NCBI GenBank assembly: GCA_026014875.1
Contig: JAOZHO010000046.1
Coordinates: 1-32,193 of the forward strand
From: Candidatus Bathyarchaeota archaeon
GTDB lineage: Archaea; Thermoproteota; Bathyarchaeia; TCS64
Direction of reading: 5' to 3'
Length of the DNA: 32,193 nt
The position numbers and the translations under genes were made by a program. Numbering within the stretch: position 1 is the stretch's first letter; each line of letters opens with the position of its first letter. Shown here piece by piece: positions 4,185 through 17,213 of the stretch. The notes below the pieces were generated by a model, which worked only from the letters and a program-made list of their open reading frames with translations, did no database searches and had not been told where the DNA came from.

Positions 4185-6131
4185 CTATTTCCTAGAAAAT
4201 ACCAACTTCAGAGAACTCCTATAAACCGTTGCTGCCACCGCTGTTGCCAAGAATGCGGCGTAGAGCCCAATGTTCCCCACGTTGAGTTGGTTCCCAAAGT
4301 CGTACGCTTGGTCTATCCCGGGGCCCCGGACATCGACGTCGACAGAACTGAAGGGCAGAATGCTGGTCAGAACCATAGTATATTTCCCGGGTTCAACTTC
4401 CCTGGTCCGCTTGCCCCCGACGTAGACCTCTGCCCCCGTGACCGGGCGTCCATCGGAGGCGTAGTAGACGTCGAGGCTCACTGTGGTCTTCCCGGGGACG
4501 ATGGTGCTCACGGTCTCGTCCACCAATATCTCGTCCCACAGGATCGAGACCTTGTTCGATGCGAAGCCCGTGATGCCGTGCTCGTCATCGACTATGGATG
4601 ACCCCGTCAGCGTCCTGGAGCCCACCTCATCGCTGATCAGCGTACCATCCAGGTTCACCTCGCCTGTGAAGGGCGCTCCGTCATACTCGTAGGTGGCGAC
4701 GACATCCACGGGAGCCCTCCTACCCACCTCGGTTCTTCCGCCGGGGTAGACTAGCTCCACCTCCACTCTGTCCCAGACGACGTTGGCGTAGTTGGACGAG
4801 AATGAGCGTATCCCGTTGAGGTTGTCGGTGACGTGGGCCACCTCCAAGAGGAGCTCCCCCACGGAATTCTTCTTAAGGATGGCCGGGGTCAGATCGATGT
4901 CGAGGAACTCCGTGACGTCGAAACCGTCCGACTGATATGTTCCCTTCCATGTGACCTCCGCTTCCTGCCCCAGGTCGATCCGGTAGTCGGCAGCCTGGAG
5001 TTCTACGTAGATGGCGTCCCACTTCACCTCCACCACATTGGTGTCGAAGGAGGTGAGGCCATAATAGGGATCTTCGACCCCTTGGACGAAATAGTCCTTG
5101 GCCCCCACCTTGTGGCTGGTGACGGAGTCCCTGTTGAGGGTGATCTCCCCGTAGAAAGGCTCCGAGTTGTACCAGTAGTGGGCGGACCACGAGATGCCCG
5201 CCTCCGCCCCCACGTCGATCCTCTCCTTCCTCGCCTCCAATGTGACCACAACTTCGTCGAAGACTACCTGCTCCGCGTTCGAGACGAAGGTGCTCACGTC
5301 GTACTTGGTGTCGAAGATGGATTCGACGGCGTAGGTATAGACCCCTGGCTCCTCCTGTTCAAGGGAGTGGTTGAACTCGATCCACCCCTGGAAGACGGCC
5401 CCGTCGAGCTCGTGGAATGCGGTCCACTCGAATTCGGCCTCGCTCCCCGTGTCTATTCGATCCTCTTCGACCCAGAATGTCACGTTCACCCTGTCCGATA
5501 TTATCTCTACAGTATCTGTTTCGAACTGGGTGATGCCGTACTGGGTGTCGTCGATGTCCTCGACGAAATAAGTTCGGGGTCCAAGCTCGGTGGAAGTGAA
5601 ATTAGGGTAATTAAAGATGAGCTCCCCCTGGAAAGGGGCGTCGTCGGAAGCGTAGTAAGCGTCGATCCTGATAGGGGCCACGGTGTCGACTCCGATGCGG
5701 TCCTCGGGGGTAATGAGCTCTACGATAACCTTGTCGAAGACGGTGGACGAGTTGGGGACCAGCTGCTGGAAGGGCGTCTCTGAGCCCCCGGAGACGATTC
5801 GGTCGATGGTGAGGTTCATCCTCCCGACGTCCCACGACGAGACCTGGACTATGGCCCACCCTTGAGCGTTCGTGTACCATTGGCCGGGGACCTCGTTGAA
5901 GTAGACTTTCAACCCGGGAGCCGGGGTTCTTGTGTCGGTGTTCGAGACATGGTACCCGAGGTACGTCGTCCCGAATCTGACGTCCGTCCGCTCCTTGGCG
6001 GCGTAGATCATGTCTACAGTGAGCAGAGGATCAGCTCTCACGGGCCCGATGAGATTCATCCCCAGAAGCCCAGTGCCATTCAGGAGGGTCAGCAATAGGA
6101 TTAGGCGTGGGATGAGGCGTCTCCTTTCCAT
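4185..6131 (-). CDS. Secreted, membrane-anchored protein with six tandem Ig-like repeats
   Basis: The protein has 648 residues. An N-terminal signal sequence (basic MERRR, hydrophobic to about 32, VRADP) and a C-terminal hydrophobic segment near 621-637 followed by basic residues suggest a surface protein anchored at its C-terminus. From about residue 133 there are six tandem units of about 80 residues starting near 133, 213, 292, 372, 454 and 533. Each unit opens with the pattern D-x-V-x-V-E-L, then E-R-I-D-V-G, then a Y-x-x-x-G-x-P-F-x-G-E strand, and closes with Y-G-I-T-x-F and a V-x-W-D. This looks like an Ig-like beta-sandwich array. The last two units are the most divergent. Function is unknown; a structural or adhesive surface role is inferred. 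Confidence 0.85.
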   Translation of the reverse strand: MERRRLIPRLILLLTLLNGTGLLGMNLIGPVRADPLLTVDMIYAAKERTDVRFGTTYLGYHVSNTDTRTPAPGLKVYFNEVPGQWYTNAQGWAIVQVSSWDVGRMNLTIDRIVSGGSETPFQQLVPNSSTVFDKVIVELITPEDRIGVDTVAPIRIDAYYASDDAPFQGELIFNYPNFTSTELGPRTYFVEDIDDTQYGITQFETDTVEIISDRVNVTFWVEEDRIDTGSEAEFEWTAFHELDGAVFQGWIEFNHSLEQEEPGVYTYAVESIFDTKYDVSTFVSNAEQVVFDEVVVTLEARKERIDVGAEAGISWSAHYWYNSEPFYGEITLNRDSVTSHKVGAKDYFVQGVEDPYYGLTSFDTNVVEVKWDAIYVELQAADYRIDLGQEAEVTWKGTYQSDGFDVTEFLDIDLTPAILKKNSVGELLLEVAHVTDNLNGIRSFSSNYANVVWDRVEVELVYPGGRTEVGRRAPVDVVATYEYDGAPFTGEVNLDGTLISDEVGSRTLTGSSIVDDEHGITGFASNKVSILWDEILVDETVSTIVPGKTTVSLDVYYASDGRPVTGAEVYVGGKRTREVEPGKYTMVLTSILPFSSVDVDVRGPGIDQAYDFGNQLNVGNIGLYAAFLATAVAATVYRSSLKLVFSRK

Positions 6132-6258: not shown

Positions 6259-6299
6259 GTGCTGATGTTTATCGCATTCTAATTGTGGAGGGAGTCTCT

Positions 6300-7517
6300 G
6301 TGGAGTATTCTGAGGAACTGATTAGGGATCTGCCTAAGAGCGATATCCATGTCCATCTGGGGGGCTCTATGAGGGCGGAGTCCCTGATCGAGATGGCTCA
6401 GGAGAGGGGCGTGGTGCTTCCCGCTGAGACTCCGGAGGGGCTGCGGAGGGAGGTCTTCAAGGATAGGTACAGCAACCTCGAAGAGTACCTCCACGGCTTC
6501 TCCTATACGAGCGCCGTCCTCCGGGACCCTGATTCCTTGGAGAGGGCGGCTTACGAGCTTTGCCTCGACTGTCAGGAGGAGGGCGTGCGCTACCTCGAGG
6601 TGCGGCTCTCCCCCCAGCTCCACACCGGGGAAGATAGCACCATTCCCACGGTCCTCTCCGCCGTGGCCAAAGGGATCAGGAGGGCGGAAAAGGGCTTCAA
6701 CGGCCGCCCTGGCGTCGCGTGCGGGCGGGAGCCCCCGTTTAAGGCGGGGATCATCGTTGCCGCGCTGCGTCACTTCGCCCCCGGTTTCTCCCGGACATAC
6801 CGGGATATGCTCAAGATATTCGAGGATCTCCCCCGGGATCAGGTCTTCGGTCTCGCGAGCGAGGCTTTGGTTCACGCGAGTGTGCGGGCCCGGGACGAGC
6901 TTGGGGTGCCTGTCGTGGGCGTGGATCTGGCGGGGAGGGAGCACGGATACCCTGCTGAGGACCACGCTAAGGCCTACCAGATCGCTCATGAGGCGTTCCT
7001 CGGGAAGACCGTTCATGCGGGGGAAGACTATGGGCCCGAGTCGATCTTCCAGGCCATCACCGAGTGCCATGCCGATCGCATCGGCCACGGGACCTGGCTC
7101 TTTGACTCGGATCAGATTCAGGACCCTGGGATCACGGACCGGCAGGGGTACGTGGATCGGCTCGTCCAGTATATAGCTGACAGGCGTATCACCGTGGAGG
7201 TCTGCCTCACATCGAATCTCCAGACCATCCCGGCTATGAAGTCGCTGAGGGATCACCCCTTCGGGAAGATGCGCCAGTCCAGGCTCTCGGTCACGCTATG
7301 CACAGATAACCGCCTCGTCTCCCGGACGACGGTGAGCCGTGAGATAGGGCTTGCTGTGGAAGCGTTCGGGCTCATGCCCAAGGAGTTGGGGGACATCCTC
7401 GTCTACGGTTTCAAGCGGTCTTTCTACCCGGGACCCTACCTGGAGAAGCGGGAGTACGTGAGGCATATCATCGATTACAGGGACGAGGTGTTCCGGCGTC
7501 ACGGGGTCGAGCTGTGA
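6300..7517 (+). CDS. add: Adenosine deaminase family protein
   Basis: TIM-barrel deaminase converting adenosine (or a related aminopurine) to inosine with a catalytic zinc. It begins with the family signature LPKSDIHVHLGGS (metal ligands H17 and H19). The catalytic VHAGED (H239, E242), the DRIGHG loop (H263), VEVCLTSNLQT and LCTDNR (D336) follow. The position after the zinc-binding Asp is Asn rather than Asp; I recall TDNRL in many bacterial and archaeal members, so this is probably not a defect. The GTG at 6300 has GGAGGGAG seven bases upstream; the GTG at 6285 overlaps that site and is less likely. About 405 residues. The exact substrate cannot be told from sequence alone. Confidence 0.9.
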   Translation: MEYSEELIRDLPKSDIHVHLGGSMRAESLIEMAQERGVVLPAETPEGLRREVFKDRYSNLEEYLHGFSYTSAVLRDPDSLERAAYELCLDCQEEGVRYLEVRLSPQLHTGEDSTIPTVLSAVAKGIRRAEKGFNGRPGVACGREPPFKAGIIVAALRHFAPGFSRTYRDMLKIFEDLPRDQVFGLASEALVHASVRARDELGVPVVGVDLAGREHGYPAEDHAKAYQIAHEAFLGKTVHAGEDYGPESIFQAITECHADRIGHGTWLFDSDQIQDPGITDRQGYVDRLVQYIADRRITVEVCLTSNLQTIPAMKSLRDHPFGKMRQSRLSVTLCTDNRLVSRTTVSREIGLAVEAFGLMPKELGDILVYGFKRSFYPGPYLEKREYVRHIIDYRDEVFRRHGVEL

Positions 7518-7939: not shown

Positions 7940-8604
7940 CGGACCTCGGTGCCGTTGTGTCCCCCTTCGATGGCTCTTGCGATCTCCTGGGGGTCTGTGC
8001 CATCGATGAATGTGATGGGGAGTTTGAGCTTCTTGGCGCGTCTCACGGCTTTCAGGTCGAAGAGTCCGTACTCTCCCGGGGCCTGCTCGGCGTTCTCCAG
8101 TATGATCTTTTCGAGCCAGTAGTGGGTGATGTGGGGGAGTTTGACTGCGTCGGGGTTGATGTCGGGGTTTCTGTCGTAGACTCCGTCGACGTCTGTGGCG
8201 TTGATGACTAGTTCGGCTTGGGCGGCTTGGGCGAAGAGGACTGTTCTGTAGTCGGTGCTGGATCCGGGTAGGTGTCCTCCGCCGACGAGGATTTTGTCGT
8301 TCATGTTTCGTTTGATCTCGCTGCCTCTGCGGTGTATGTGGGGGTGGGCGTGGGGGCCCAGGGCGGCGATGAGGAGGAGGGCGTTGAGGTGGGTGGCGTG
8401 GATGCCGAGGCGGTCCTGGGTGTAGGGGGGTGCTCCCAGTTGTTTGGCGAGTTTGATCCAGTGTCGGGCGGTTCTGCCGCCTCCGGTGACTACTATGAGT
8501 TGGTGGCCTCGTTCCTTCAGTTCGATTAGTGTGGTGGCGTACTTGGTGTAGGCTTCGGGGGTGTGGGTGAGGAGGCTTCCGCCGAGGCTGATGGCGACTC
8601 TCAT
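7936..8604 (-). CDS. pyrH: UMP kinase, archaeal type
   Basis: Amino-acid-kinase-fold enzyme phosphorylating UMP to UDP in pyrimidine synthesis. The N-terminus MRVAISLGGSLL is the phosphate-binding GG loop, VTGGGRTARHWI follows near residue 40, and NATDVDGVYDRNP near residue 137 is the ATP-site signature. GEYGLFDLKAV and a closing FIDGTDP near the C-terminus match archaeal PyrH. 222 residues is typical. A TATA-like CATAAATC (8627-8634) about 25 bases before the ATG suggests a leaderless message. The gene diverges from the tRNA-Leu. Confidence 0.92.
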   Translation of the reverse strand: MRVAISLGGSLLTHTPEAYTKYATTLIELKERGHQLIVVTGGGRTARHWIKLAKQLGAPPYTQDRLGIHATHLNALLLIAALGPHAHPHIHRRGSEIKRNMNDKILVGGGHLPGSSTDYRTVLFAQAAQAELVINATDVDGVYDRNPDINPDAVKLPHITHYWLEKIILENAEQAPGEYGLFDLKAVRRAKKLKLPITFIDGTDPQEIARAIEGGHNGTEVR

Positions 8605-8656
8605 GGTTGGGTGGTTGTGTTGGTTTGATTTATGGGTTGGGTGTGCTGGGGAACGG

Positions 8657-8663
8657 TTTTAAG
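8657..8663 (+). promoter_or_regulatory. Putative TATA box of tRNA-Leu
   Basis: GTTTTAA lies 27-33 bases before the 5' end of the tRNA, the usual archaeal spacing. Confidence 0.4.
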
Positions 8664-8688
8664 GTTCTTGTGTTGATTGGTTGGTTGG

Positions 8689-8771
8689 GCGGGGGTTCCC
8701 GAGTGGTCAAAGGGGCGGGACTCAAGATCCTGTAGCTCAGGCTTCCGAGGGTTCGAATCCCTCCCTCCGCA
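8689..8771 (+). tRNA. tRNA-Leu (anticodon CAA)
   Basis: The acceptor stem GCGGGGG pairs with CCTCCGC (one G-U). The anticodon stem CGGGA/TCCTG encloses CTCAAGA, giving anticodon CAA. A long variable arm (class II) and a T arm GAGGG-TTCGAAT-CCCTC follow, with discriminator A at 8771. CCA is not encoded and no intron is seen. The gene borders the accessory region to its right, a common position for integration hot spots, but no second copy of its 3' end was found in the window. Confidence 0.95.
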
Positions 8772-8785
8772 CTTTTTTATTTTTT
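8772..8785 (+). terminator. T-rich terminator after tRNA-Leu
   Basis: Two runs of six T separated by one A directly follow the tRNA, typical of archaeal oligo-T termination. Confidence 0.65.
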
Positions 8786-8904
8786 GTTTGGTGGTGTTTG
8801 GGGTATTTTTTGGGGTTGTTTCGTTGTTTTACGTGTTTTCAGGGTTGGGTTTGGGTGGTGTTTGCTACTGTACAGCTACTGAACTGCTTCATGCGGTGTG
8901 GGCT

Positions 8905-8988
8905 CTAGGGGGGGATTGCTGTTGGTGTGTGTCCTGCGGCGTAGACCGAGGGCGAGGTCCCAGAACCGATCATCGTGGGTGCCCTCGG
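8905..8988 (-). pseudogene. Terminase large-subunit 3'-end fragment, copy A
   Basis: Read on the minus strand from 8988, this gives EGTHDDRFWDLAL, then after a one-base frame change VYAAGHTPTAIPP and a stop. It matches the last ~30 codons of the intact terminase at 14208-15563 (EGTHDDRFWALALAAYAAEQ). Over the first 40 bases I count 35 identities, and four of the five differences are silent, so it descends from a working coding sequence. Nothing upstream of EGT matches the terminase. The rest of 8786-9071 is GT-rich and shows no other gene. Confidence 0.8.
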
Positions 8989-9071
8989 TTCATGGGGCTG
9001 GATTTCAGCTCGAATCTGCTCGGGTGTTTCAGGATTTCTTGTTTTATCTAGGTCGTTTATCTCGGTGACCT

Positions 9072-9281
9072 TTATTCATCAATATCGTTGCCTGATTTTT
9101 CGCTCTTAGATGCTGGATTCCGACAGACTTGGAAGCTATTAGTTGAGATTGTGAATCGTTTACCCTGTTGCGTAGGCTTCTTGACCCGTTTTTCCGTGTC
9201 ATCGGTTTTCCCTTTATGGACTACTTTGCTGCCGCGCCGTAGATCATATTTGACCGTGGTCTTCTTCGCATCTCGTCCCAT
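9072..9281 (-). CDS. GIY-YIG-like mini-protein (putative, possibly truncated)
   Basis: A basic 69-residue protein. TVKYDLRRGSKVVHKGKTDD followed by T-E-K-R resembles the first strands of GIY-YIG-type proteins (Y-x-L ... G-x-x-V-x-x-G-x-T-x-D-x-x-x-R). Small archaeal proteins of this kind normally continue with an E-H motif and a conserved C-terminal helix; here the equivalent reads RVKKPTQQGKRFT and the tail is short, so the gene may be decaying. The ATG at 9281 has AAAGGAG nine bases upstream. An in-frame GTG at 9326 would add 15 residues but has no such site. A long plus-strand frame over the same bases is taken as its mirror. It lies between terminase fragments A and B. Confidence 0.5.
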   Translation of the reverse strand: MGRDAKKTTVKYDLRRGSKVVHKGKTDDTEKRVKKPTQQGKRFTISTNSFQVCRNPASKSEKSGNDIDE

Positions 9282-9589
9282 TGTTACAATCTCCTTTTTC
9301 CCGCATCTGACCGTTTTTTTCTCCACTTACCGGATTTGGTGCGTGACCTTTCTTTGCTCCATTTCCCCCTTGTCACTCTGGGTGCGGTCAAAACGATCAA
9401 TATCACTTAACTGTCAGCCATATTTATTTGTTGTTACCGTACAAAAGAGGCCATTATATAGCCGGATTAACCGAAATAAGGATATTATTACTGCAAAGTT
9501 TACGGTTAACATGAATATGTCAGAAAAATGTGTGTTGATCTAAAAATATTTTCATGTAAATGGGGAATGATGATTTTTTTCGATAGGTT

Positions 9590-9656
9590 TCGAGGCGAGC
9601 GTTGGTGCTAGCTCTGAGGCTTATATGGTGAGGGCCCAGAATAGGTCATCGTTCGT
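9590..9656 (-). pseudogene. Terminase large-subunit 3'-end fragment, copy B
   Basis: Read from 9656 on the minus strand: TNDDLFWALTI, a TAA, then ASELAPTLASKP. It aligns to the intact terminase end (THDDRFWALALAAYAAEQTPIASPP), with the stop falling at the Tyr position. The DNA core GAGGGCCCAGAA at 9630-9641 (plus strand) is shared exactly with copy D. Confidence 0.65.
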
Positions 9657-9794
9657 ATGGCACGAGTATACATGCAAGTAAGAAATAAGCTGTGATACGC
9701 CCCCTGAACAATCAACAATAAGGCTATTCCCCGTCGTATGTGTTAAACGTTAAATGGAAATAAACATCATTCAATGGTGGAGTAAGCAAATATT

Positions 9795-10367
9795 ATGCAC
9801 GTGAATAATTGGAAACAATTTAAATTAATCGTTACGGATCCATCAAAATCGTCTCTTCATTTTGATTTGGTCAAGCACGAGATAATTCCTTTTGTAAATG
9901 AACTAGATATTCGTTTCTGGGTAACTAATTATCGTAATCCAAAAGAGGATTATATTTTATTTAGGGTTGATGTTAGCGATGAAGAGTCCCAAATGACAGC
10001 AAAATTTCTTAATGAATTAAAAACTAAAAAAAGAATAGTAAATTGGATTCCCCAAGGTTGGAAGCCAGAAGTTGACGCTCGTAAACGAATAGAATCAGCA
10101 TGTCAAAAAATTGAGATTTCTGGCATTAAAATACCTTCGAATTTCCGTGATATGTTTATAACTGAAGAAAGAGTTAAACAACTAACAGCCATCTTTGAAG
10201 ATGCAGTGGGTCCTTGTACAAAAATACTATATGAAACCCTTTTTTCGAGACCGAACGAACCTTGGATGATGTCAGTATTTTTTCATCTCGTGCTAAATGC
10301 TATTGACATGAGTGGTCCTGATCCTCCCTCGGAAGAAGATACCATTAGAAAGATGCCTCCAGTGTAG
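9795..10367 (+). CDS. Unknown 190-aa protein, partner of the ATPase-TOPRIM gene
   Basis: AT-rich gene encoding a 190-residue soluble protein with mixed alpha/beta character. I do not recognise it with confidence. The segment WKQFKLIVTDPSK ... FVNELDIRFWVTNYRNPKED faintly recalls the C-terminal domain of lantibiotic dehydratases (SpaB_C / thiopeptide-type), which carries a conserved R-Y after a similar helix, but this is weak. The C-terminal half is helical and ends in a Pro-rich tail. The ATG at 9795 is preceded by GGTGGAG about 14 bases away, so initiation is not strongly supported. It shares orientation and base composition with the ATPase gene 153 bases downstream, suggesting one operon and one module. 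Confidence 0.7.
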   Translation: MHVNNWKQFKLIVTDPSKSSLHFDLVKHEIIPFVNELDIRFWVTNYRNPKEDYILFRVDVSDEESQMTAKFLNELKTKKRIVNWIPQGWKPEVDARKRIESACQKIEISGIKIPSNFRDMFITEERVKQLTAIFEDAVGPCTKILYETLFSRPNEPWMMSVFFHLVLNAIDMSGPDPPSEEDTIRKMPPV

Positions 10368-10399
10368 ATTTTACCTCATATGTAGGGTTTGAAAGAAAA

Positions 10400-10516
10400 A
10401 TGAAGGTCTGGAAGAAATGGCTCCATGAGCACTACCCCCCGGGCATCGTTAGGAAATATGATTCCGAAAAACCCTTCAAGCTAAACAGCATGGTTTGCGC
10501 GTGCAAAGTGGGTTGA
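10400..10516 (+). CDS. Possible 38-aa small ORF
   Basis: ATG at 10400 to TGA at 10514-10516 encodes a basic 38-residue peptide (MKVWKKWLHEHYPPGIV... ending MVCACKVG). It ends 4 bases before the ATPase ATG and is less AT-rich than its flanks. It may be a leader peptide, a small protein or chance. No homology is recognised. Confidence 0.25.
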   Translation: MKVWKKWLHEHYPPGIVRKYDSEKPFKLNSMVCACKVG

Positions 10517-10520
10517 AAAA

Positions 10521-12599
10521 ATGATTGAAAGCTTTCGAGTTGAAAATGAAAAGATAATCAAACTTGCTGAATGTACTAAGGTTCCTAGATTAATGATTAT
10601 TGCTGGATCTAACGGTGCTGGCAAATCAACTCTTCTTACTGCTTTGAAGAAAAGGAAAGGAGTTATTGGGCAAAGTAGATCTCTCTATATCTCTCCTTCA
10701 CGTTCTTGGTATAGGCAAAAAGTCCAGCCAATGTATTTAATGGGACCGCGAATAAATTGGTCAGACATTATTGAAGGTGACACAGTAAGAGGAATTCAAG
10801 GTCTATCTACAAGGGGGTTATCAAGATATGACGTCTTAGATGAAGCTCCTGGAACCATTAAGCACATTATTGGTCAAATTGAAATGCGTAGACTTCAACT
10901 GATAACTAAAATTTTTGACCAAACGGGATCAGCAAATAAAGAGAATATACCGGATATTCATAAGCCATTGAGAGATCTAATTAGTTTCTTTTTACCTCAT
11001 CTTCAATTCTCGCGTATAGACATAACCGCTTCGGATGAGGCAAAAATTCTCTTTAAACATTTGTACCAGTTGACGCCTGAAGGAAATTTAGAAATAGATA
11101 TCTATGATTTGAGTTCTGGCGAAAGAGAAATAATGACATTATTTCTCAATTTTATTGAGCAACAAATAAAGGAGGAACTTGCAGAACACGAGGGAACAAG
11201 CATTGAATCTCCTCAAGATATGACAATAATTATCGATACGCCCGAACTTCATTTACACCCAGCTCTACAAATAAAACTTCTAGTTTACATGAGAAAAATG
11301 ATTGGAGAAAGTAATGTTCAATTCATTGTGGCTACTCATTCTCCAATATTGATCAATAGCGCTAATTTTGATGAATTATTTGTTCTCATGCCTCCAGAGA
11401 ATATGCGGGATTACAATCAACTCGTAAATATAGCAACTGAGGCTGAGAGATTAGAAACGGTTAGAAAAATAACCGGTGAAACATACTCATTAACACTTGG
11501 AAAACCATTAGTCTTTATCGAAGGGAGACCACCCATCGAAGCTACAAGGGAACCTTCTGATCTAAGAATACTTGAATTGATGTGTCCAGAATTTTCTTCC
11601 TATAACTTTATACCTTTCCATGATAAGCAAAGGATTCTTTCTTTATTTAAAGAAGTTTCAGCTGAAGCAGAATTAACACCGCTAGGATTATTTCTCTTTG
11701 CTATTTTAGACAAGGATAGAATCATAGAATCTTCAGATGGGGAACTAGGCCGCGTATTCCAATGGCCTGTGTGTTCAATTGAGAATTTTTTATTAGATAA
11801 AGAAGCAATATGGAAAGTCATTTCTCCCCACCGTGAAAGGCTCGGTTGGAGCGAATCAGACGATGTTAAGCAAGCATTAAAAGAAATAGCATTGGGGTTA
11901 AAAGATGAAGAATTGAGGTTGAGAGTCGGGAGAAACATAGGGCCTTTTAGATGGCATCTAACTGGATGCTCTGAAACTGAACTTGAAGATAATTTTAGAG
12001 CAGGCGAAATAAAATATCAGGAAATATTAGGTGATGCTGAAAAAAGGAAGAAAGCATTTGAAGAAGCAAAACTCGAAATAGGTGATATTGTTAATGATGA
12101 AACAATGCTTATCTATTTTAGAGGAAAAGAAATTCTTAAGAAATTTCATACAAAGTATATTGGAAACTCGATTATGAACTATCCTGCCTTTGCGTATCAA
12201 GTAGCAGAAAGAATTGGAAGAGAAGGACCTCCTTCAGGATTGCTGAGAGTTAAAGTTCATATAGATTCATTTGTACCTTGGTCTCTTCCATTAGAATTTA
12301 AAGATCTATTGGGTCTCCTCCAAAGGAATTTAGCAACCATTCCACTACAAGAAAAAATACTTTCGGATCTAGAGGAAATAATGTCTAACTTAGAAAAAGC
12401 AGTTCTCGAAGCAAAAAGGTTAACTGCCCCCATAATCGACCGTAAATTATTAAAGGAAAAATGCTGGGACTTCTTAATTCTTCTCCGTCAGCACATAGAA
12501 CAACAACCTCAAACTGATTTGACCAAAAAAGTCATTATAAAAATAAATTTGTGTCTCACAAGAACAGCAGCAATACGCACTCCTACTGTGAGCGTTTAA
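10521..12599 (+). CDS. AAA/ABC-type ATPase fused to a TOPRIM-like (DUF4435-like) domain, probable defence nuclease
   Basis: A 692-residue protein. The N-terminal half is an SMC/ABC-like ATPase: Walker A GSNGAGKST (29-37), signature LSSGE (197-201), Walker B TIIIDTPELHLHP (235-247) with catalytic E242, and switch ATHSP (271-275). From about 328 a TOPRIM-like domain of the DUF4435 kind follows: VFIEG (E334), a hydrophobic strand ending LDKDR (D397, D399), and IENFLLDKE (420-428). The rest is helical. ATPase plus TOPRIM is the architecture of OLD nucleases, of Gabija GajA and, as two proteins or a fusion, of the PARIS system (AriA/AriB). A role in anti-virus defence is inferred. A hairpin over the stop codon (GAGCGT/ACGCTC) and a second one (CGCAA/TTGCG, 12613-12630) may end the transcript. 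Confidence 0.82.
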   Translation: MIESFRVENEKIIKLAECTKVPRLMIIAGSNGAGKSTLLTALKKRKGVIGQSRSLYISPSRSWYRQKVQPMYLMGPRINWSDIIEGDTVRGIQGLSTRGLSRYDVLDEAPGTIKHIIGQIEMRRLQLITKIFDQTGSANKENIPDIHKPLRDLISFFLPHLQFSRIDITASDEAKILFKHLYQLTPEGNLEIDIYDLSSGEREIMTLFLNFIEQQIKEELAEHEGTSIESPQDMTIIIDTPELHLHPALQIKLLVYMRKMIGESNVQFIVATHSPILINSANFDELFVLMPPENMRDYNQLVNIATEAERLETVRKITGETYSLTLGKPLVFIEGRPPIEATREPSDLRILELMCPEFSSYNFIPFHDKQRILSLFKEVSAEAELTPLGLFLFAILDKDRIIESSDGELGRVFQWPVCSIENFLLDKEAIWKVISPHRERLGWSESDDVKQALKEIALGLKDEELRLRVGRNIGPFRWHLTGCSETELEDNFRAGEIKYQEILGDAEKRKKAFEEAKLEIGDIVNDETMLIYFRGKEILKKFHTKYIGNSIMNYPAFAYQVAERIGREGPPSGLLRVKVHIDSFVPWSLPLEFKDLLGLLQRNLATIPLQEKILSDLEEIMSNLEKAVLEAKRLTAPIIDRKLLKEKCWDFLILLRQHIEQQPQTDLTKKVIIKINLCLTRTAAIRTPTVSV

Positions 12600-12630
12600 G
12601 CGGATATACGCTCGCAAAATTGTTCTTGCG
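12590..12630 (+). terminator. Tandem hairpins after the ATPase-TOPRIM gene
   Basis: GAGCGT and ACGCTC flank the stop codon, and CGCAA (12613-12617) pairs with TTGCG (12626-12630). There is no long T run. The hairpins coincide with the right edge of the AT-rich island and the tail of terminase fragment C. Confidence 0.35.
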
Positions 12631-12707
12631 ATAGGACCGCTCATTGGCTGTATTTGATCAGCGGCGTAGGCTGTGAGGGCGAGGGCCTAGAAGTGGTCGT
12701 GGTGGGT
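12618..12707 (-). pseudogene. Terminase large-subunit 3'-end fragment, copy C
   Basis: Read from 12707 on the minus strand: THHDHF, a TAG in place of the Trp codon, then ALALTAYAADQIQ and PMSGPIARTI. It aligns with the intact terminase down to the same final residues (ALALAAYAAEQ ... ARTI). The homology starts right after the TAG stop of the 67-aa membrane protein and in the same frame. Confidence 0.82.
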
Positions 12708-12911
12708 CTAATGCGCGCGGCGTGTGAGCGTCCAGACTAGCATCCAAACGAATGTCACCAGCATCAGAATATCGAATATCGGCCCAGGTTGGGGATAGGC
12801 AACGATTGAACCTGTTGCTATACCGTAGGAGTACCAGACTCCTACGGCTAGGCCTATGATGATCAGTAGGACTGCTTTTATCTTCGCTGGTGGTTGACGG
12901 ATTTTGGTCAA
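12708..12911 (-). CDS. Small two-helix membrane protein
   Basis: A 67-residue protein with a basic N-terminus and two transmembrane helices (about residues 12-34 and 47-63), linked by a short loop with YPQPGP and ending in TRRAH. The start is a TTG; a TATA-like CTATAAG sits about 20-25 bases upstream, so the message may be leaderless. The stop codon abuts terminase fragment C. Function is unknown. A membrane-acting effector or toxin-like peptide of a defence cassette is possible but unproven. Confidence 0.55.
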   Translation of the reverse strand: MTKIRQPPAKIKAVLLIIIGLAVGVWYSYGIATGSIVAYPQPGPIFDILMLVTFVWMLVWTLTRRAH

Positions 12912-13026
12912 ATGGTGTCTGTGCTTATAGAGGCCCGCTTTGATTTATGTTTTGTTGAATGTTTGTCATTATGGGTTTTCTTCGGCCCTTGTTTCTTTGC
13001 GTGATTGGTATGCTGTGTAAGTTTGT

Positions 13027-13080
13027 TTTCTTTGAGGCATAGACTGCGAGGGCCCAGAAGTGGTCGTCGTAGAAGATGTG
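13027..13080 (-). pseudogene. Terminase large-subunit 3'-end fragment, copy D
   Basis: Read from 13080 on the minus strand: HIFYDDHFWALAVYASKKTN, aligning to HDDRFWALALAAYAAEQ of the intact terminase with a short deletion. It begins 4 bases after the stop codon of the winged-helix gene. The remaining bases to 12912 show no gene. Confidence 0.72.
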
Positions 13081-13084
13081 ATGT

Positions 13085-13429
13085 CTAGTTTACAGGGGGG
13101 GTTGCTGGTTCTATTTTCTCCTGTTCGATGAGTATCCCCAGTGCCATGAGCGTCTTTTTTGCTACTTCTGTCGTGTCGTAGGAGGAGTATGTCCTGTCGG
13201 GGTTCCGGGAGAGCTTTCTCCTCAGTATGTTTCCCTGCACCAGTATGTCCAGGTGGTATGCCAGGGTTCCCTTGCTGATGGTCTTTCCCGTCACGGTCTC
13301 CAGGTGTTCCCTTATGCCCGTGAAGGAGACGGGGGAGGCGTTGAGGACGAGGTTGACTATCTGCATTCGGGTTGAGCTGTCGAGGGCTTTGATCATCCTC
13401 ATCACTTTGATGTCTGGCTTCAGGGTCAT
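13085..13429 (-). CDS. ArsR-like winged-helix transcription regulator
   Basis: A 114-residue DNA-binding protein. MRMIKALDSSTRMQIVNLVLN is the first helix pair of ArsR/HTH_20-type regulators. The recognition region is ISKGTLAYHLDILVQGNIL, followed by a beta-wing (RRKLSRNPDRTYSSYD) and a C-terminal helix. A TTG at 13459 would extend the protein, but a TATTTAAAAT box at about 13464-13472 on this strand places the transcript start near 13440, so the ATG at 13429 is preferred (leader about 10 nt). A perfect inverted repeat just upstream of the TATA box is a candidate autoregulatory operator. Its neighbour upstream is the SLOG-like gene, which it may regulate. Confidence 0.8.
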   Translation of the reverse strand: MTLKPDIKVMRMIKALDSSTRMQIVNLVLNASPVSFTGIREHLETVTGKTISKGTLAYHLDILVQGNILRRKLSRNPDRTYSSYDTTEVAKKTLMALGILIEQEKIEPATPPVN

Positions 13430-13481
13430 TGTCCGCACGCATGCACATAATATTTTCAATCTATTTTAAATATTTCGTTTT

Positions 13482-13499
13482 GGTCTAAAAGATTAGACC
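13482..13499. promoter_or_regulatory. Palindromic operator upstream of the winged-helix gene
   Basis: GGTCTA-N6-TAGACC (13482-13499) is a perfect inverted repeat. It lies about 10 bases upstream of the TATA box of the regulator gene and overlaps the stop codon of the 206-aa gene. Its position suits control of the regulator's own promoter. Confidence 0.5.
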
Positions 13500-14119
13500 T
13501 ACTCATCTACGCGCTTTTCAGGTGGGTGGGCTAGCTTGTACAAACGATAGGCCCCCATCATCATGAGTGCGATGTACTCGGGCGTCCTGTGCGTCTCGTT
13601 CTTAGAATCATAGGGGTACACGTGGCCATGTGTCGCCATCAGTTCCTGATACACGGACGTCAAGTAACTTACAGACTCCGCGTACAGGGGATGATACTGG
13701 AAGGGGACGAGGACCCTAACCTTGGGTCGGATGACTGGGTCACGGGTGAACTGGAGGAGCTCCGCGGCGGCCCCCCTAGAGTCCGGGAAGATGAATACAA
13801 TGTCCACCTCAGGCTCCCTCAGGATGATCTGCTCCTCTAAACTGGCGTACTCCAGCTCCAGGTCTTCCTCGAATGTCGTGGCTAGGCAGCCACTATCGTT
13901 GAGCGCCGTTTTCAACGCGTTTCTCTGATGGTACATGCACTCCATTTTCTTCTCAGGTTCACAAGCGACGCAATCTTCATCTGGACCACATTTACCCGGA
14001 CCGCAGATAACCACCAGGGGCACAATGTTGTTTAAGCGAGATTTCAGTTCATCATAGATTCTCTTTAACGCGTTTCCATCAATCAGATCGTATCTTCTCT
14101 CATCATTCATGCCCATCAT
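13499..14119 (-). CDS. Cys-rich SLOG/Rossmann-like protein (putative defence effector or sensor)
   Basis: A 206-residue protein. LVVICGPGKCG (about 35-45) is a first Rossmann-type strand and loop. It is followed by a cysteine cluster (C-G-x-x-E-D-C-x-x-C then M-E-C) that could bind metal. IVFIFPDSRGAAAELLQF (about 107-124) resembles the D-x-x-G-x-x-A-E-L signature of SLOG / nucleoside deoxyribosyltransferase-like folds, which occur in NAD- or nucleotide-processing immune proteins. The family is assigned by pattern only. Three nearby ATGs (14119, 14116, 14110) could serve as start and none has a clear ribosome binding site. It lies between the terminase and the regulator on the same strand. 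Confidence 0.6.
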   Translation of the reverse strand: MMGMNDERRYDLIDGNALKRIYDELKSRLNNIVPLVVICGPGKCGPDEDCVACEPEKKMECMYHQRNALKTALNDSGCLATTFEEDLELEYASLEEQIILREPEVDIVFIFPDSRGAAAELLQFTRDPVIRPKVRVLVPFQYHPLYAESVSYLTSVYQELMATHGHVYPYDSKNETHRTPEYIALMMMGAYRLYKLAHPPEKRVDE

Positions 14120-14207
14120 CCGCTATCTTAGCCGTTTTCCAGCGATGCAGTGATTCACTTTCAACTGAATGTCTAATTTCAACACGGATTTACATATAGC
14201 TTTTCAC

Positions 14208-15563
14208 TCAAATGGTTCTGGCTCTCGGCGGGCTTGCTATTGGCGTCTGCTCCGCTGCGTATGCTGCGAGGGCGAGGGCCCAAAACCTGTCGTCGTGGGT
14301 GCCCTCGGGGTGGCTGTAGGTTATGCGGCCCGTCTTGGTGAGCTGGTAATTCTCGGTGTTCAGCTCGTCGAGGAGGTCCCGGTCGTAGGGTATCCGGAGC
14401 TGCCCCTGTGTCATGCGCTGCCTGAGAATCTGAGCCATCTCCTGCTTGCTCTTGACAGTGAAGAAGACGCCCTCCGGGTTAGCCACCCCGGCCCCCCTCA
14501 TGTCCTCGACAATATAGTCCCCGTGCTTGGTGCTGTCGACATAGGTGGCGTGGATCCTGTCCCAGCGCTCCGATAGGAGCTTCCCGTAGCCGATCACGGA
14601 GGCTATGCTCGTCCCCTTCTTGAAGCGGTGCATGTGGACCAGCCGCAGGACCTCGGTTCGCTCCAGGACGGCTATGACGCTGTGGTCCACCCTCTCGGCG
14701 AGGTCGATCCCCGCGTAGAAGCGGCCCCGCCTCCGGGAGTCGAAGGGGTAATAGTCCAGGGTCTCGCTGCAGCACTTGGCCAGCAGGTCCTGGGTGAGCC
14801 ACGTGTCTGCCTCCTCGGCGAACTCGGCCAGGTACTCCATGCGGTAGGCCTGGGGGTTGGACTCCCTCTGCCTCTCGATATGCTCCAGGAAGCCGGGGTG
14901 GTAGACCCCCTCGTCATACGCCTCCCTCCAGGTGACCACGTGCTTCTCATAACCGGGGCCCTGATTCAGCCTGTAGAATACTGTGTTCCGCCCCCACGGG
15001 GTGCTGCTCACGACGAGGGTGCCGTCGGTGGTCGCCAGCATGGGCGGCAGGATATTGTCAAATATGGCGTCGTCGTTGTGGAAGAAGGCGGCCTCGTCGG
15101 CCACTATGAGGTCCGCGGTGAACCCCCTGAGCTGGTGCTCAGAGTTGGGCAGAATGATAATGATGCTGCGGTTCCTGAAGCGGAAAATGGTCTTCAAACT
15201 CTGACGCACCAGGCCCCGGTACTCCCCGGGCAGGTTCTCCAGGAGACTCCGTATACGGTCCCCCAGGATCATCGACTGCCGGAGCCCGGGGGATATTATC
15301 AGCACCGTCGATCTCGGAATCGTAGCAGCCCTGATGATGCTCAGAGTTGCGAGGGCGGTCGTCTTCCCGCTCTGGCGGGCCCACCTCACGACTATACGCT
15401 TGGAGCCTGACTCGAGAAGTCTTCTCTGGTAGCTCGTGGGCCTGAATTTGAGGAGTTCCCCGCAGAAGGTGTGGGGGTCGTCTGGGAGCGGGGGAGGCTT
15501 CACGGAGATGCTGTTTATCCTATTCTCCAGGCTTTTCAGCTTCCTCCATAAGCTCCTCGACAC
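14208..15563 (-). CDS. Phage-type terminase large subunit (TerL)
   Basis: A 451-residue DNA-packaging motor protein, apparently complete. ATPase: Walker A WARQSGKTT (61-69), Walker B DLIVADE (151-157), coupling motif SSTPWG (186-191). RNase H-like nuclease: GIDLAE (D287), TYVDST (D343) and HDDRFWALALA (D424/D425), so all three acidic sites are present. The start overlaps the upstream 110-aa gene by 44 bases. There is no portal, protease or capsid gene nearby, so it is either a provirus remnant or a domesticated terminase. Its last ~30 codons are repeated, degenerate, four times to the left. Confidence 0.93.
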   Translation of the reverse strand: MSRSLWRKLKSLENRINSISVKPPPLPDDPHTFCGELLKFRPTSYQRRLLESGSKRIVVRWARQSGKTTALATLSIIRAATIPRSTVLIISPGLRQSMILGDRIRSLLENLPGEYRGLVRQSLKTIFRFRNRSIIIILPNSEHQLRGFTADLIVADEAAFFHNDDAIFDNILPPMLATTDGTLVVSSTPWGRNTVFYRLNQGPGYEKHVVTWREAYDEGVYHPGFLEHIERQRESNPQAYRMEYLAEFAEEADTWLTQDLLAKCCSETLDYYPFDSRRRGRFYAGIDLAERVDHSVIAVLERTEVLRLVHMHRFKKGTSIASVIGYGKLLSERWDRIHATYVDSTKHGDYIVEDMRGAGVANPEGVFFTVKSKQEMAQILRQRMTQGQLRIPYDRDLLDELNTENYQLTKTGRITYSHPEGTHDDRFWALALAAYAAEQTPIASPPRARTI

Positions 15564-15852
15564 GACAGGTCAACTCCTCCAGCTTCTCGTTGATGGCATG
15601 ACCGTCATATGCCTCCAGGATCGAGTTAGCCGTCTTATGGACATAGGCGGCGATCCTAGACCACTTCTGGCGATCAGCCGTGGGCAGATACTTCGAAGTC
15701 GCCCGATCATGAGCCACATCGGCGAGCTCCGTCAACTGCACTATCGCCTGCTCCCGATACTGCTGGGGGTCAACGGGCGACTTCAGCCGAATCCGCCGTG
15801 TCCTGACCAGAAATTTCCTGAAAAACCGTGGGGAAATCGCGTAATCGCACAA
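15520..15852 (-). CDS. Small helical protein upstream of TerL (terminase small-subunit candidate)
   Basis: A 110-residue, mostly helical protein with a basic N-terminus (RFFRKFLVRTRRIRLK) and a C-terminal segment (INEKLEELTCRVEELMEEAE) likely to form a coiled coil. It overlaps the TerL start by 44 bases, the place where small terminase subunits are usually encoded, but I see no HTH that proves the assignment. The start is a TTG. A TATA-like ATTTATAG at about 15888-15900 on this strand gives a short leader. Confidence 0.6.
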   Translation of the reverse strand: MCDYAISPRFFRKFLVRTRRIRLKSPVDPQQYREQAIVQLTELADVAHDRATSKYLPTADRQKWSRIAAYVHKTANSILEAYDGHAINEKLEELTCRVEELMEEAEKPGE

Positions 15853-16052
15853 AATGGTCTCAACCTTCGAATAAATCGTCCTCGCGTCAGTCTATAAATT
15901 TTTTATAACATATATTATCGTAAAATCAGGCTCGACCTAAAATTCCTGATTAAATCTCATTGTTAATCATACACGAAGAATTGAATGCCGCTGTCGAAAT
16001 TTTAATCAGCGCATACCAACAATTTAGACCATTAGCTAGGAGGATTCAGCCA

Positions 16053-17213
16053 GTGGCAACACCATTCAATATTCCCGCAACGATTATCGTCGGCGGAGGA
16101 GCCAGCAACGAGGTCGGAGCACAGGCGAAGAGATTCGGGGTCAAGAACGTTCTCCTCGTAACCGATTCATACATGGAAAACAGCGGCCTCGCAGGTAAAG
16201 TAGCGGACTCGATGAAGAGGGCCGATGTTAACGTCACGGTCTTTTCGGGTGTCCAGCCCGACCCCACCGACCTGAACGTTCTCGAGGGCCTAGAAATGCT
16301 GAAGGAGAACCACTGCGGCATGGTGGTCGGCCTCGGGGGCGGAAGCCCCATGGACTGCGCCAAGGCGATCTCTGCGATGAGCGCCAACCAACCCCCCATC
16401 AGCCGGTACGCGGGTCTCCACAAGGTCCCCCGGAAGGGTGTCCCCATCATGACCATGCCCACCACGGCGGGAACCGGGGCGGAGGTGACCAAGGTCGTCG
16501 TCATCGGCGACACCCAGCGCAACGTCAAGATGATGATCCTCGACCTCAACCTGATGCCCGATGCGGCCCTCGTGGACTATGAACTCACCATGAGCTGCCC
16601 CCCCTCGCTGACGGCCAACGTCGGCGTGGACACCCTCGTTCACGCTGTAGAGGCCTATGTATCCGTGAAGGCCAACCCGATGACGGACCCCTATGCCCTC
16701 TCATCCATCAGACTCGTCTCGGAGAACCTCCTCAAGGCGTACAAAGAGCCTAACAGCGCCAAAGCCCGGAGAGGAATGACCCTCGCATCACTGCAGGCAG
16801 GCATCGCCTTCCCGAACAGCAGCGTCTGCCTAGTACACGGAATGAGCAGGCCCATAGGCGCCCTCTACCACGTGCCCCACGGCCTCTCAAACGCCGTCCT
16901 GTTCCCCACGGTGACGGAATTCTCCATCTCGGGAGCCCCCCAACGCTATGCCACCGTATCCCGCACCATGGGCTATGGCACCGACGCGGATTCCGACGAT
17001 GACGCCAACATGAAACTCGTCGCCGGCCTGAAGAAACTCAACCAAGACCTTCAGATCCCGCGTCTGGGCGACGTCTGCAACGTTGAACGGACAACCTTCG
17101 ATGAAAATGTGCAAAAGATGGCCCACGACAGCCTGGCCTCGGGAAGCCCCAACAACAATCCCGTCATACCCACGGCGGAACAAATAGTGGACCTCTATCA
17201 CATGGCCTGGTAG
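16053..17213 (+). CDS. Iron-containing alcohol dehydrogenase
   Basis: Group III (Fe-ADH) dehydrogenase, NAD(P)-dependent. The N-terminus MATPFNIPATIIVGGGAS is the usual start of the family, GGGSPMD (95-101) binds the cofactor, and MPTTAGTGAEVT follows. The metal ligands D193, H197 (GVDTLVHAVEAY), H262 (CLVHG) and H276 (VPHGLSNA) are all present. The GTG at 16053 has AGGAGG eight bases upstream and gives 386 residues, the family norm. The frame is open back to a TTG at 15960, but that extension matches nothing in the family. The physiological alcohol or aldehyde cannot be told. It is not the archaeal G1P dehydrogenase. Confidence 0.92.
   Translation: MATPFNIPATIIVGGGASNEVGAQAKRFGVKNVLLVTDSYMENSGLAGKVADSMKRADVNVTVFSGVQPDPTDLNVLEGLEMLKENHCGMVVGLGGGSPMDCAKAISAMSANQPPISRYAGLHKVPRKGVPIMTMPTTAGTGAEVTKVVVIGDTQRNVKMMILDLNLMPDAALVDYELTMSCPPSLTANVGVDTLVHAVEAYVSVKANPMTDPYALSSIRLVSENLLKAYKEPNSAKARRGMTLASLQAGIAFPNSSVCLVHGMSRPIGALYHVPHGLSNAVLFPTVTEFSISGAPQRYATVSRTMGYGTDADSDDDANMKLVAGLKKLNQDLQIPRLGDVCNVERTTFDENVQKMAHDSLASGSPNNNPVIPTAEQIVDLYHMAW

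What the first reader, a model, noticed from the sequence alone, without database searches (positions are those of the whole stretch)
9795..12599. AT-rich defence module: unknown 190-aa protein plus fused ATPase-TOPRIM
The 692-aa protein joins an SMC/ABC-like ATPase (GSNGAGKST, LSSGE, IDTPELHLHP) to a DUF4435/TOPRIM-like domain (FIEG, LDKDR, IEN). This is the logic of OLD and PARIS systems, but the upstream 190-aa partner matches no known partner of those (no UvrD helicase, no separate AriB). Base composition shows recent import into the cassette region.
Basis: partly seen in the sequence, partly recalled or inferred. Interest (0 to 1): 0.72.

Follow-up and report, generated by a model that had tools for sequence, protein, structure and literature searches.

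The report
Fused PARIS gene in terminase-end cassette array
An archaeal genome carries a single-gene version of the known virus-defence system PARIS inside one of several small gene packages (toxin-antitoxin, defence and other genes) stacked behind a leftover virus packaging gene, each package separated by a copy of that gene's tail, which suggests that the tail is a landing site for incoming gene packages.

Summary
The two genes are real and correctly described. The 692-aa protein is not a new system: it meets all three published Pfam score thresholds for PARIS (AAA_15, AAA_21, DUF4435) and its best PADLOC match is fused AriAB (E 1.9e-50). The 190-aa gene looks coding but is an ORFan: no profile match, and no relative in plasmids, phages, IMG/VR, GTDB contigs, 257 genomes of its class, or beside 17 relatives of the ATPase. 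It is unproven as a partner.

The unexpected part is the setting. The ~3.0-kb AT-rich module (37% GC against 55-59%) lies between degenerate copies of the 3' end of an orphan terminase gene (terL, 14208-15563 -). Five terL ends, counting the gene's own, stand in a row on one strand. A second terL in the same genome and several in three related genomes show the same arrays. Cargo includes AbiE twice, VapBC three times and metabolic genes; cassettes are shared between arrays. Most copies begin abruptly at the codons for the terminase nuclease motif, and four share a different ~50-bp left arm: the signature of site-specific integration at the terL 3' end. No integrase was found in the arrays, and no such arrays in the open papers searched.

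The parts
10521..12599 (+). 692-aa fused ABC ATPase + DUF4435/TOPRIM-like protein (AriAB-like, single-gene PARIS)
   Evidence: Pfam AAA_15 56.7 bits (cut-off 32.1), AAA_21 54.5 (27), DUF4435 30.7 (27); PADLOC AriAB PDLC02981 E 1.9e-50 as best match; E334, D397, D399 and E421 invariant in five relatives
9795..10367 (+). 190-aa ORFan directly upstream; role unknown
   Evidence: no Pfam, NCBIfam or PADLOC match, only PHROG matches at E>=0.036; no relatives found; codon-position GC matches the 692-aa gene
9653..12680 (.). AT-rich cassette (3.0 kb, 36.7% GC) carrying both genes, bounded by terL-end copies
9653..9702 (-). attP-like left arm of the cassette, ~50 bp, homologous to arms at three other terL-end copies (L025, L101, L102)
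   Evidence: pairwise z 8.8-13.5 against shuffles; arm plus core found only in two of 27 genomes of the family, two sites each
9630..9652 (-). terL-end copy (att-like core) closing the cassette
12681..12703 (-). terL-end copy (att-like core) on the terL side of the cassette; carries a stop codon
13048..13070 (-). terL-end copy
8954..8976 (-). terL-end copy farthest from terL (78% over 90 nt), ~200 bp from tRNA-Leu
14208..15563 (-). orphan terminase large subunit (TerL) gene, 451 aa; its 3' end holds the proposed attachment core (14274-14296)
   Evidence: Pfam Terminase_6N 2.6e-11 and 6C 7.4e-5; PHROG terminase large subunit 4.4e-37
15520..15852 (-). small gene overlapping terL (TerS-like position); homologous small genes precede terL in relatives
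   Evidence: synteny and ORFs in L097 and L102
13071..14210 (-). terL-proximal cassette: 124-aa HTH protein (13085-13459) and 206-aa protein of unknown function (13499-14119)
12708..13047 (-). small cassette with a 67-aa ORF, shared with another terL locus (G232:C58, 72% nt)
8689..8772 (+). tRNA-Leu(CAA), at the far end of the array

Best explanation
The 692-aa gene is a single-gene PARIS system (AriA-type ATPase sensor joined to an AriB-like TOPRIM effector). By analogy with PARIS, the ATPase part would hold the nuclease inactive, sense a viral protein and release the nuclease, which stops translation (tRNA cleavage) and aborts infection; that step is inferred, not shown. The gene was delivered, with the unrelated-looking 190-aa ORFan, as the cargo of a ~3-kb non-autonomous cassette. 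The cassette entered by site-specific recombination at the 3' end of an orphan archaeal terminase gene. Its attachment core is the DNA encoding the terminase nuclease motif HDDRFWALALA. Each insertion replaces the terL tail and leaves the old tail behind, so cassettes pile up into an array. Shown: homology, motifs, repeats, their sharp edge, the shared left arm and cassette sharing. Inferred: the recombination chemistry, an enzyme acting in trans, the defence function, and whether the 190-aa protein takes part.
For: Fused PARIS: the three Pfam cut-offs used by Rousset et al. 2022 (32/27/27) are all exceeded on one protein (PMC9122126); AriAB is the best PADLOC model by about 30 orders of magnitude, as it is for the closest relative, Gloeobacter plasmid protein WP_230844279 (4.2e-51; 33.5% over 567 aa). 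Array: in the window only the C-terminal end of TerL is repeated, only downstream, never antisense: 4 extra copies for the window terL, 4 for the second terL in the same genome, 4 in G232:C22, 1 in G246:C194. It is absent from 36 distant terL loci of the class and from 76 of 78 viral terL loci, the two exceptions not being arrays. Edges: mean identity to terL jumps from 0.54 to 0.84-0.94 at the core against a background of 0.39. Four copies in two genomes share a non-terL left arm (z 8.8-13.5). Cassettes move: an AbiE cassette lies in arrays anchored by two terL types that are 34% identical (76% nt over 1.8 kb); the orthologous terL in G236:C18 carries different cargo.
Against: No recombinase gene lies in the array; the three tyrosine-recombinase matches found in the genome are on other contigs. 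Several copies (L025 9032, L059 12512 and 14621, L097) keep 75-100 nt or more of terL upstream of the core, so not all junctions are alike. The right-hand arm of the cassettes is not conserved across arrays. The defence function is untested. The Walker-B catalytic Glu position is Thr (DTPE), unusual among the relatives aligned. All genomes are draft assemblies.
Confidence: 0.7

Rival explanations
1. The 190-aa and 692-aa proteins form a true two-component defence system in which the 190-aa protein is an essential sensor, activator or antitoxin.
For: Same strand, 153 bp apart, same base composition and codon-position profile, alone together in one cassette.
Against: No homologue of the 190-aa gene anywhere searched and none beside 17 loci with relatives of the ATPase, including the closest (Gloeobacter) and the only class relative (G096). 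Single-gene fusions count as PARIS by the published definition, without a further partner.
Confidence: 0.3
2. The 692-aa protein is an OLD-type ATP-dependent DNA nuclease rather than a PARIS tRNase.
For: It shares AAA_15/AAA_21 ATPase and TOPRIM-type residues with OLD, Gabija and retron effectors; it has weaker matches to GajA, PtuA and an OLD structure. A review leaves open whether AriAB fusions are a separate OLD class (PMC10568477).
Against: DUF4435 above its cut-off; AriAB is by far the best model.
Confidence: 0.3
3. The terL-end repeats are relics of repeated terL gene duplication and decay, or of homologous recombination between terL genes, not of site-specific integration.
For: terL is multi-copy (up to 10 matches per genome); some copies keep long terL stretches upstream (G246:C194, G232:C22); L101 holds an internally deleted terL.
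Against: Most of the 14 copies profiled begin sharply at the core, four of them with a shared non-terL left arm; copies lie only downstream of terL and on the same strand; foreign cargo lies between copies.
Confidence: 0.2
4. The orphan TerS-like/TerL pair (with the ABC ATPase-acetyltransferase gene seen at some loci) is itself the capture machinery, making this an integron-like platform.
For: The array always begins at the terL 3' end, as integron arrays begin beside the integrase; terL keeps its nuclease motif; no integrase is in the arrays; terL stays open although virus structural genes are absent.
Against: Most terL loci in the class (36 of 36 distant ones tested) have no array, so terL alone does not make one; terminases are not known recombinases (own knowledge).
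Confidence: 0.1

Closest known systems
PARIS, single-gene AriAB fusion (Rousset et al. 2022, PMC9122126)
   Same: AAA_15/AAA_21 ATPase plus DUF4435 on one polypeptide, all published score thresholds exceeded; carried as cargo in a variable locus
   Different: Distant branch (about 21-22% identity to cyanobacterial and alphaproteobacterial AriAB-type proteins); DTPE Walker-B motif; ~120-aa C-terminal extension absent from the Gloeobacter relative; archaeal host; 190-aa ORFan upstream
AAA ATPase of Gloeobacter morelensis plasmid pGMOR1 (WP_230844279)
   Same: 33.5% identity over 567 residues, same domain order, also best matched by AriAB
   Different: No 190-aa gene beside it; bacterial plasmid; shorter C-terminus
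OLD (class 1), Gabija GajA, retron PtuA
   Same: ABC-type ATPase of the same superfamily; OLD and GajA also carry a TOPRIM nuclease
   Different: Weaker profile matches; Gabija and retrons have other obligatory partners that are absent here (own knowledge)
Archaeal integrated elements in 3'-distal parts of protein-coding genes (Thaumarchaeota, PMC6563490)
   Same: Integration at the 3' end of a gene with replacement of the tail; att direct repeats; tandem integration known
   Different: Targets there do not include terL in the passages read; here the cassettes are small (~0.4-6 kb) and no recombinase was found in them
Integrons in archaea (PMC9668308) and staphylococcal SCC arrays at rlmH (SCC from own knowledge)
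   Same: Serial capture of small cargo cassettes at one site next to a fixed gene, with repeats between cassettes
   Different: No integron integrase or attC-type site shown here; cargo genes lie in both orientations; SCC elements carry their own ccr recombinases

Membership tests
PARIS (single-gene AriAB) | AAA_15 (>=32 bits) or AAA_21 (>=27 bits) ATPase domain | tested here: met
   56.7 and 54.5 bits; thresholds from PMC9122126
PARIS (single-gene AriAB) | DUF4435 (>=27 bits), fused or in a neighbouring gene | tested here: met
   30.7 bits at residues 358-437, fused. The paper's own fusion profiles (thresholds 80 and 20) were not available here
PARIS (single-gene AriAB) | Best profile among known defence families is AriAB | tested here: met
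   PDLC02981 E 1.9e-50; next PtuA 5.7e-19
PARIS (single-gene AriAB) | TOPRIM metal-binding Glu and DxD conserved | tested here: met
   E334, D397, D399 invariant in five relatives; not aligned directly to E. coli AriB
PARIS (single-gene AriAB) | TOPRIM fold of the effector domain | tested here: inconclusive
   single-sequence model pLDDT 36
PARIS (single-gene AriAB) | Triggered by a viral protein; AriB cleaves tRNA | not testable with these tools
   needs experiment; behaviour of E. coli PARIS in PMC12409363
Gabija | UvrD-like helicase (GajB) beside the ATPase | tested here: not met
   the only genes of size in the cassette are the 190-aa ORFan and the 692-aa gene
Integron | Integron integrase next to the array | tested here: not met
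   Pfam Phage_integrase matches in the genome only on contigs C13, C24 and C45, none on the array contigs C8 and C50
Integron | Folded attC sites | not tested
   the repeats are terL coding ends; hairpin structure was not examined
Site-specific integrated element at a gene 3' end | Direct repeats of the target's 3' end flanking the element, with a sharp core boundary | tested here: met
   a minority of copies keep more terL upstream
Site-specific integrated element at a gene 3' end | Shared element-side (attP) arm | tested here: met
   four left arms homologous, z 8.8-13.5
Site-specific integrated element at a gene 3' end | Recombinase encoded by the element | tested here: not met
   no Phage_integrase match on the array contigs and none among the cargo proteins scanned
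Head-tailed provirus | Portal and capsid genes near terL | tested here: not met
   viral relatives have a portal gene and, in one of two checked, a major head protein next to terL; the window has an Fe-ADH and an MFS transporter upstream and the cassettes downstream

The most novel reading that the evidence does not exclude
A domesticated archaeal virus terminase (TerS-like/TerL, at some loci with an ABC ATPase-acetyltransferase gene) anchors and perhaps drives an integron-like platform that captures toxin-antitoxin and defence cassettes at the DNA encoding its own nuclease motif.
Probability: 0.1. Interest if true: 0.85.

Novelty: new variant of a known kind. Interest (0 to 1): 0.5.

Why it matters
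The defence protein itself is a distant archaeal member of a known system. Its setting could matter more. Terminase-like genes occur in 110 of 257 genomes of this archaeal class, and in one family their 3' ends look like landing sites where small defence, toxin-antitoxin and other cassettes accumulate. The target is DNA that encodes a catalytic motif and so changes little, as with tRNA genes, and a genome can offer several sites. If confirmed, this explains how some archaea gather defence genes and gives a simple repeat signature for finding more cassettes, including ones with unknown cargo.

Tried and rejected
Relatives of the 190-aa gene: two hits at E about 0.006-0.009 in the class proved to be an SMC-like coiled coil and a non-coding frame. 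Structure prediction of both proteins from single sequences: pLDDT 46 and 36, unusable, so no fold search was made. Genome-wide scan for the 692-aa family with a two-sequence alignment: only two weak patterns were used and nothing was confirmed. A repeat-pattern match at C24:117637 was rejected: it lies in a 135-aa NUDIX-like ORF. Integration at tRNA-Leu: its 3' end is not repeated in the window. An 84-aa ORF at 9072-9326 and a 38-aa ORF at 10400-10516 had no meaningful profile match. Literature: no open paper found on terL-end cassette arrays; of two archaeal dark-matter surveys, one does not mention terminase and one mentions TerL only as a virus marker.

Full report
What was checked. Both genes are present at the stated coordinates with the stated lengths and motifs. 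The region is AT-rich: 36.7% GC for 9653-12680, 35.1% and 35.9% for the two genes, against 55-59% elsewhere. The 190-aa frame is not exceptional by length alone, but its GC by codon position matches that of the 692-aa gene, so it is very likely coding. The window is a whole contig (C8) of a draft genome with 51 contigs. The genome is archaeal: archaeal RNase P scores 206 bits, while among the 14 control genomes only four, the same number as the archaea in that set, exceed the cut-off.

The 692-aa protein. It passes the curated Pfam cut-offs for AAA_15, AAA_21 and DUF4435. These are the domains and score thresholds with which Rousset et al. detected two-gene PARIS, and they also report single-gene fusions of the same domains (PMC9122126). 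In PADLOC its best match is AriAB at E 1.9e-50, followed by PtuA at 5.7e-19. The closest relative found is a 569-aa protein on a Gloeobacter plasmid (33.5% over 567 aa), also best matched by AriAB. In an alignment of five relatives the nucleotide-binding residues, LSSGE, E334, D397, D399 and E421 are invariant. Position 240, normally the catalytic Glu of Walker B (DEPE), is Thr. Residues beyond ~570 form an extension absent from the Gloeobacter protein. In solved structures it resembles retron PtuA ATPases, an OLD nuclease and AriA. I file it as a distant single-gene PARIS. The mode of action (viral trigger, release of a TOPRIM nuclease, tRNA cleavage) is inferred from E. coli PARIS (PMC12409363) and not shown here. 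A review leaves open whether fusions behave like PARIS or like OLD (PMC10568477).

The 190-aa protein. No match in Pfam, NCBIfam or PADLOC, only PHROG matches at E 0.036 or worse, and no relative in plasmids, phages, viral contigs, GTDB genome contigs or 257 genomes of the class. It is absent beside 17 loci that hold relatives of the ATPase. It could be a partner, a regulator or an unrelated passenger; the data do not tell. Single-sequence structure models were useless.

The setting. Repeats of about 40 bp flank the module. A pattern search of the whole genome placed the good matches (up to one mismatch) in this window and in one other place, contig C50. There the last copy is the 3' end of an intact gene for a terminase large subunit (506 aa; Pfam Terminase_6N and 6C). 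The window has its own terL at 14208-15563 (-), 34% identical to the C50 one. Searching with each terL's own C-terminal 45 residues gives four extra copies behind the window terL and four behind the C50 terL, all downstream and on the same strand; no other part of the window terL is repeated. The same is seen in G232:C22 (four copies) and G246:C194 (one), and terL-end copies also lie downstream at G236:C60, C32 and C18. Thirty-six more distant terL loci of the class have none. Viral terL genes, which sit beside portal (and in one case capsid) genes, have no arrays either (78 tested; structural genes checked in two).

What lies between the copies. In G232:C22: AbiEi/AbiEii, then three VapBC-like pairs. 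In C50: AbiEi/AbiEii, an AT-rich 410-aa protein of unknown family and other small genes. In the window: an HTH protein with a 206-aa protein, a 67-aa ORF, the 190-aa/692-aa pair and a nearly gene-free stretch. In G236:C18, whose terL and upstream transporter are orthologous to the window's (85-93% nt), a set of metabolic genes lies there instead (names by inspection). Cargo is therefore mixed, with defence and toxin-antitoxin genes frequent. The AbiE cassette in C50 and that in G232:C22 are 76% identical over 1.8 kb although the terL genes that anchor them are of different types. The 67-aa-ORF cassette of the window sits directly behind terL in G232:C58 (72% over 254 bp). Cassettes therefore move between arrays.

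Why site-specific integration. Most copies become similar to terL abruptly at the codons for HDD|RFW. Mean identity is 0.47-0.54 in the 75 nt before the core and 0.84-0.94 in the core, against a background of 0.39. Four copies (window 9630, C50, and two G236 arrays) share instead another left arm of about 50 bp, far beyond shuffled controls. Arm plus core was found only in two genomes of 27 in the family, two sites each. This is the expected pattern of attR sites: the element's arm, the common core and the displaced old terL tail. The 190-aa/692-aa cassette carries such an arm at 9653-9702. Thaumarchaeal elements are known to integrate in 3'-distal parts of protein-coding genes, and tandem integrations occur (PMC6563490), so the mechanism class is known. 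An orphan terL as target, the small size, the lack of a recombinase in the array and the stacking of several cassettes are what differ. The recombinase is unknown: the three tyrosine-recombinase matches in the genome are on other contigs.

A suggestive link. In the 257 class genomes only one other relative of the 692-aa protein reached E 1e-10. It lies in G096:C23 about 1.3 kb from a terL gene, on its 5' side, without terL-end copies. Orphan terL loci may attract defence genes more widely; this was not tested against a proper background.

Limits. Draft genomes, few array loci, no function tested, no structure, no metagenome scans. Only open papers could be searched. Defence labels of cargo rest on profile matches.

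Noticed in passing
G000:C50:238000-256000 (L025): Second array behind a 506-aa TerL in the same genome: AT-rich 410-aa protein without family match, AbiEi/AbiEii, several small genes; upstream a PIN protein, a small gene and an ABC ATPase-acetyltransferase fusion.
   Followed up: partly
L059 (G232:C22) 8840-17000: terL followed by AbiEi/AbiEii and three VapBC-like pairs, separated by terL ends.
   Followed up: partly
L057 17940-19463 and L025 14769-16229: ABC ATPase fused to a GNAT acetyltransferase next to orphan TerS-like/TerL genes in two genomes; function unknown.
   Followed up: no
class-wide: TerL-like genes match in 110 of 257 genomes of this archaeal class, up to 10 matches per genome.
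   Followed up: partly
L076 / L005 (G096:C23): AriAB-like gene flanked by a HEPN-like small gene about 1.3 kb from another terL gene, in a different family of the class.
   Followed up: partly
L101 (G236:C32) 8417-9872: A tRNA-Ser just upstream of an internally deleted terL and a tRNA-Gly inside the following cassette.
   Followed up: no
window 8977-9629: Nearly gene-free 650-bp stretch between the two terL-end copies farthest from terL; an 84-aa ORF there has no clear family.
   Followed up: partly
window 4185-6131 and 6279-7256: Two long minus-strand ORFs (648 and 325 aa) without a significant Pfam match.
   Followed up: no
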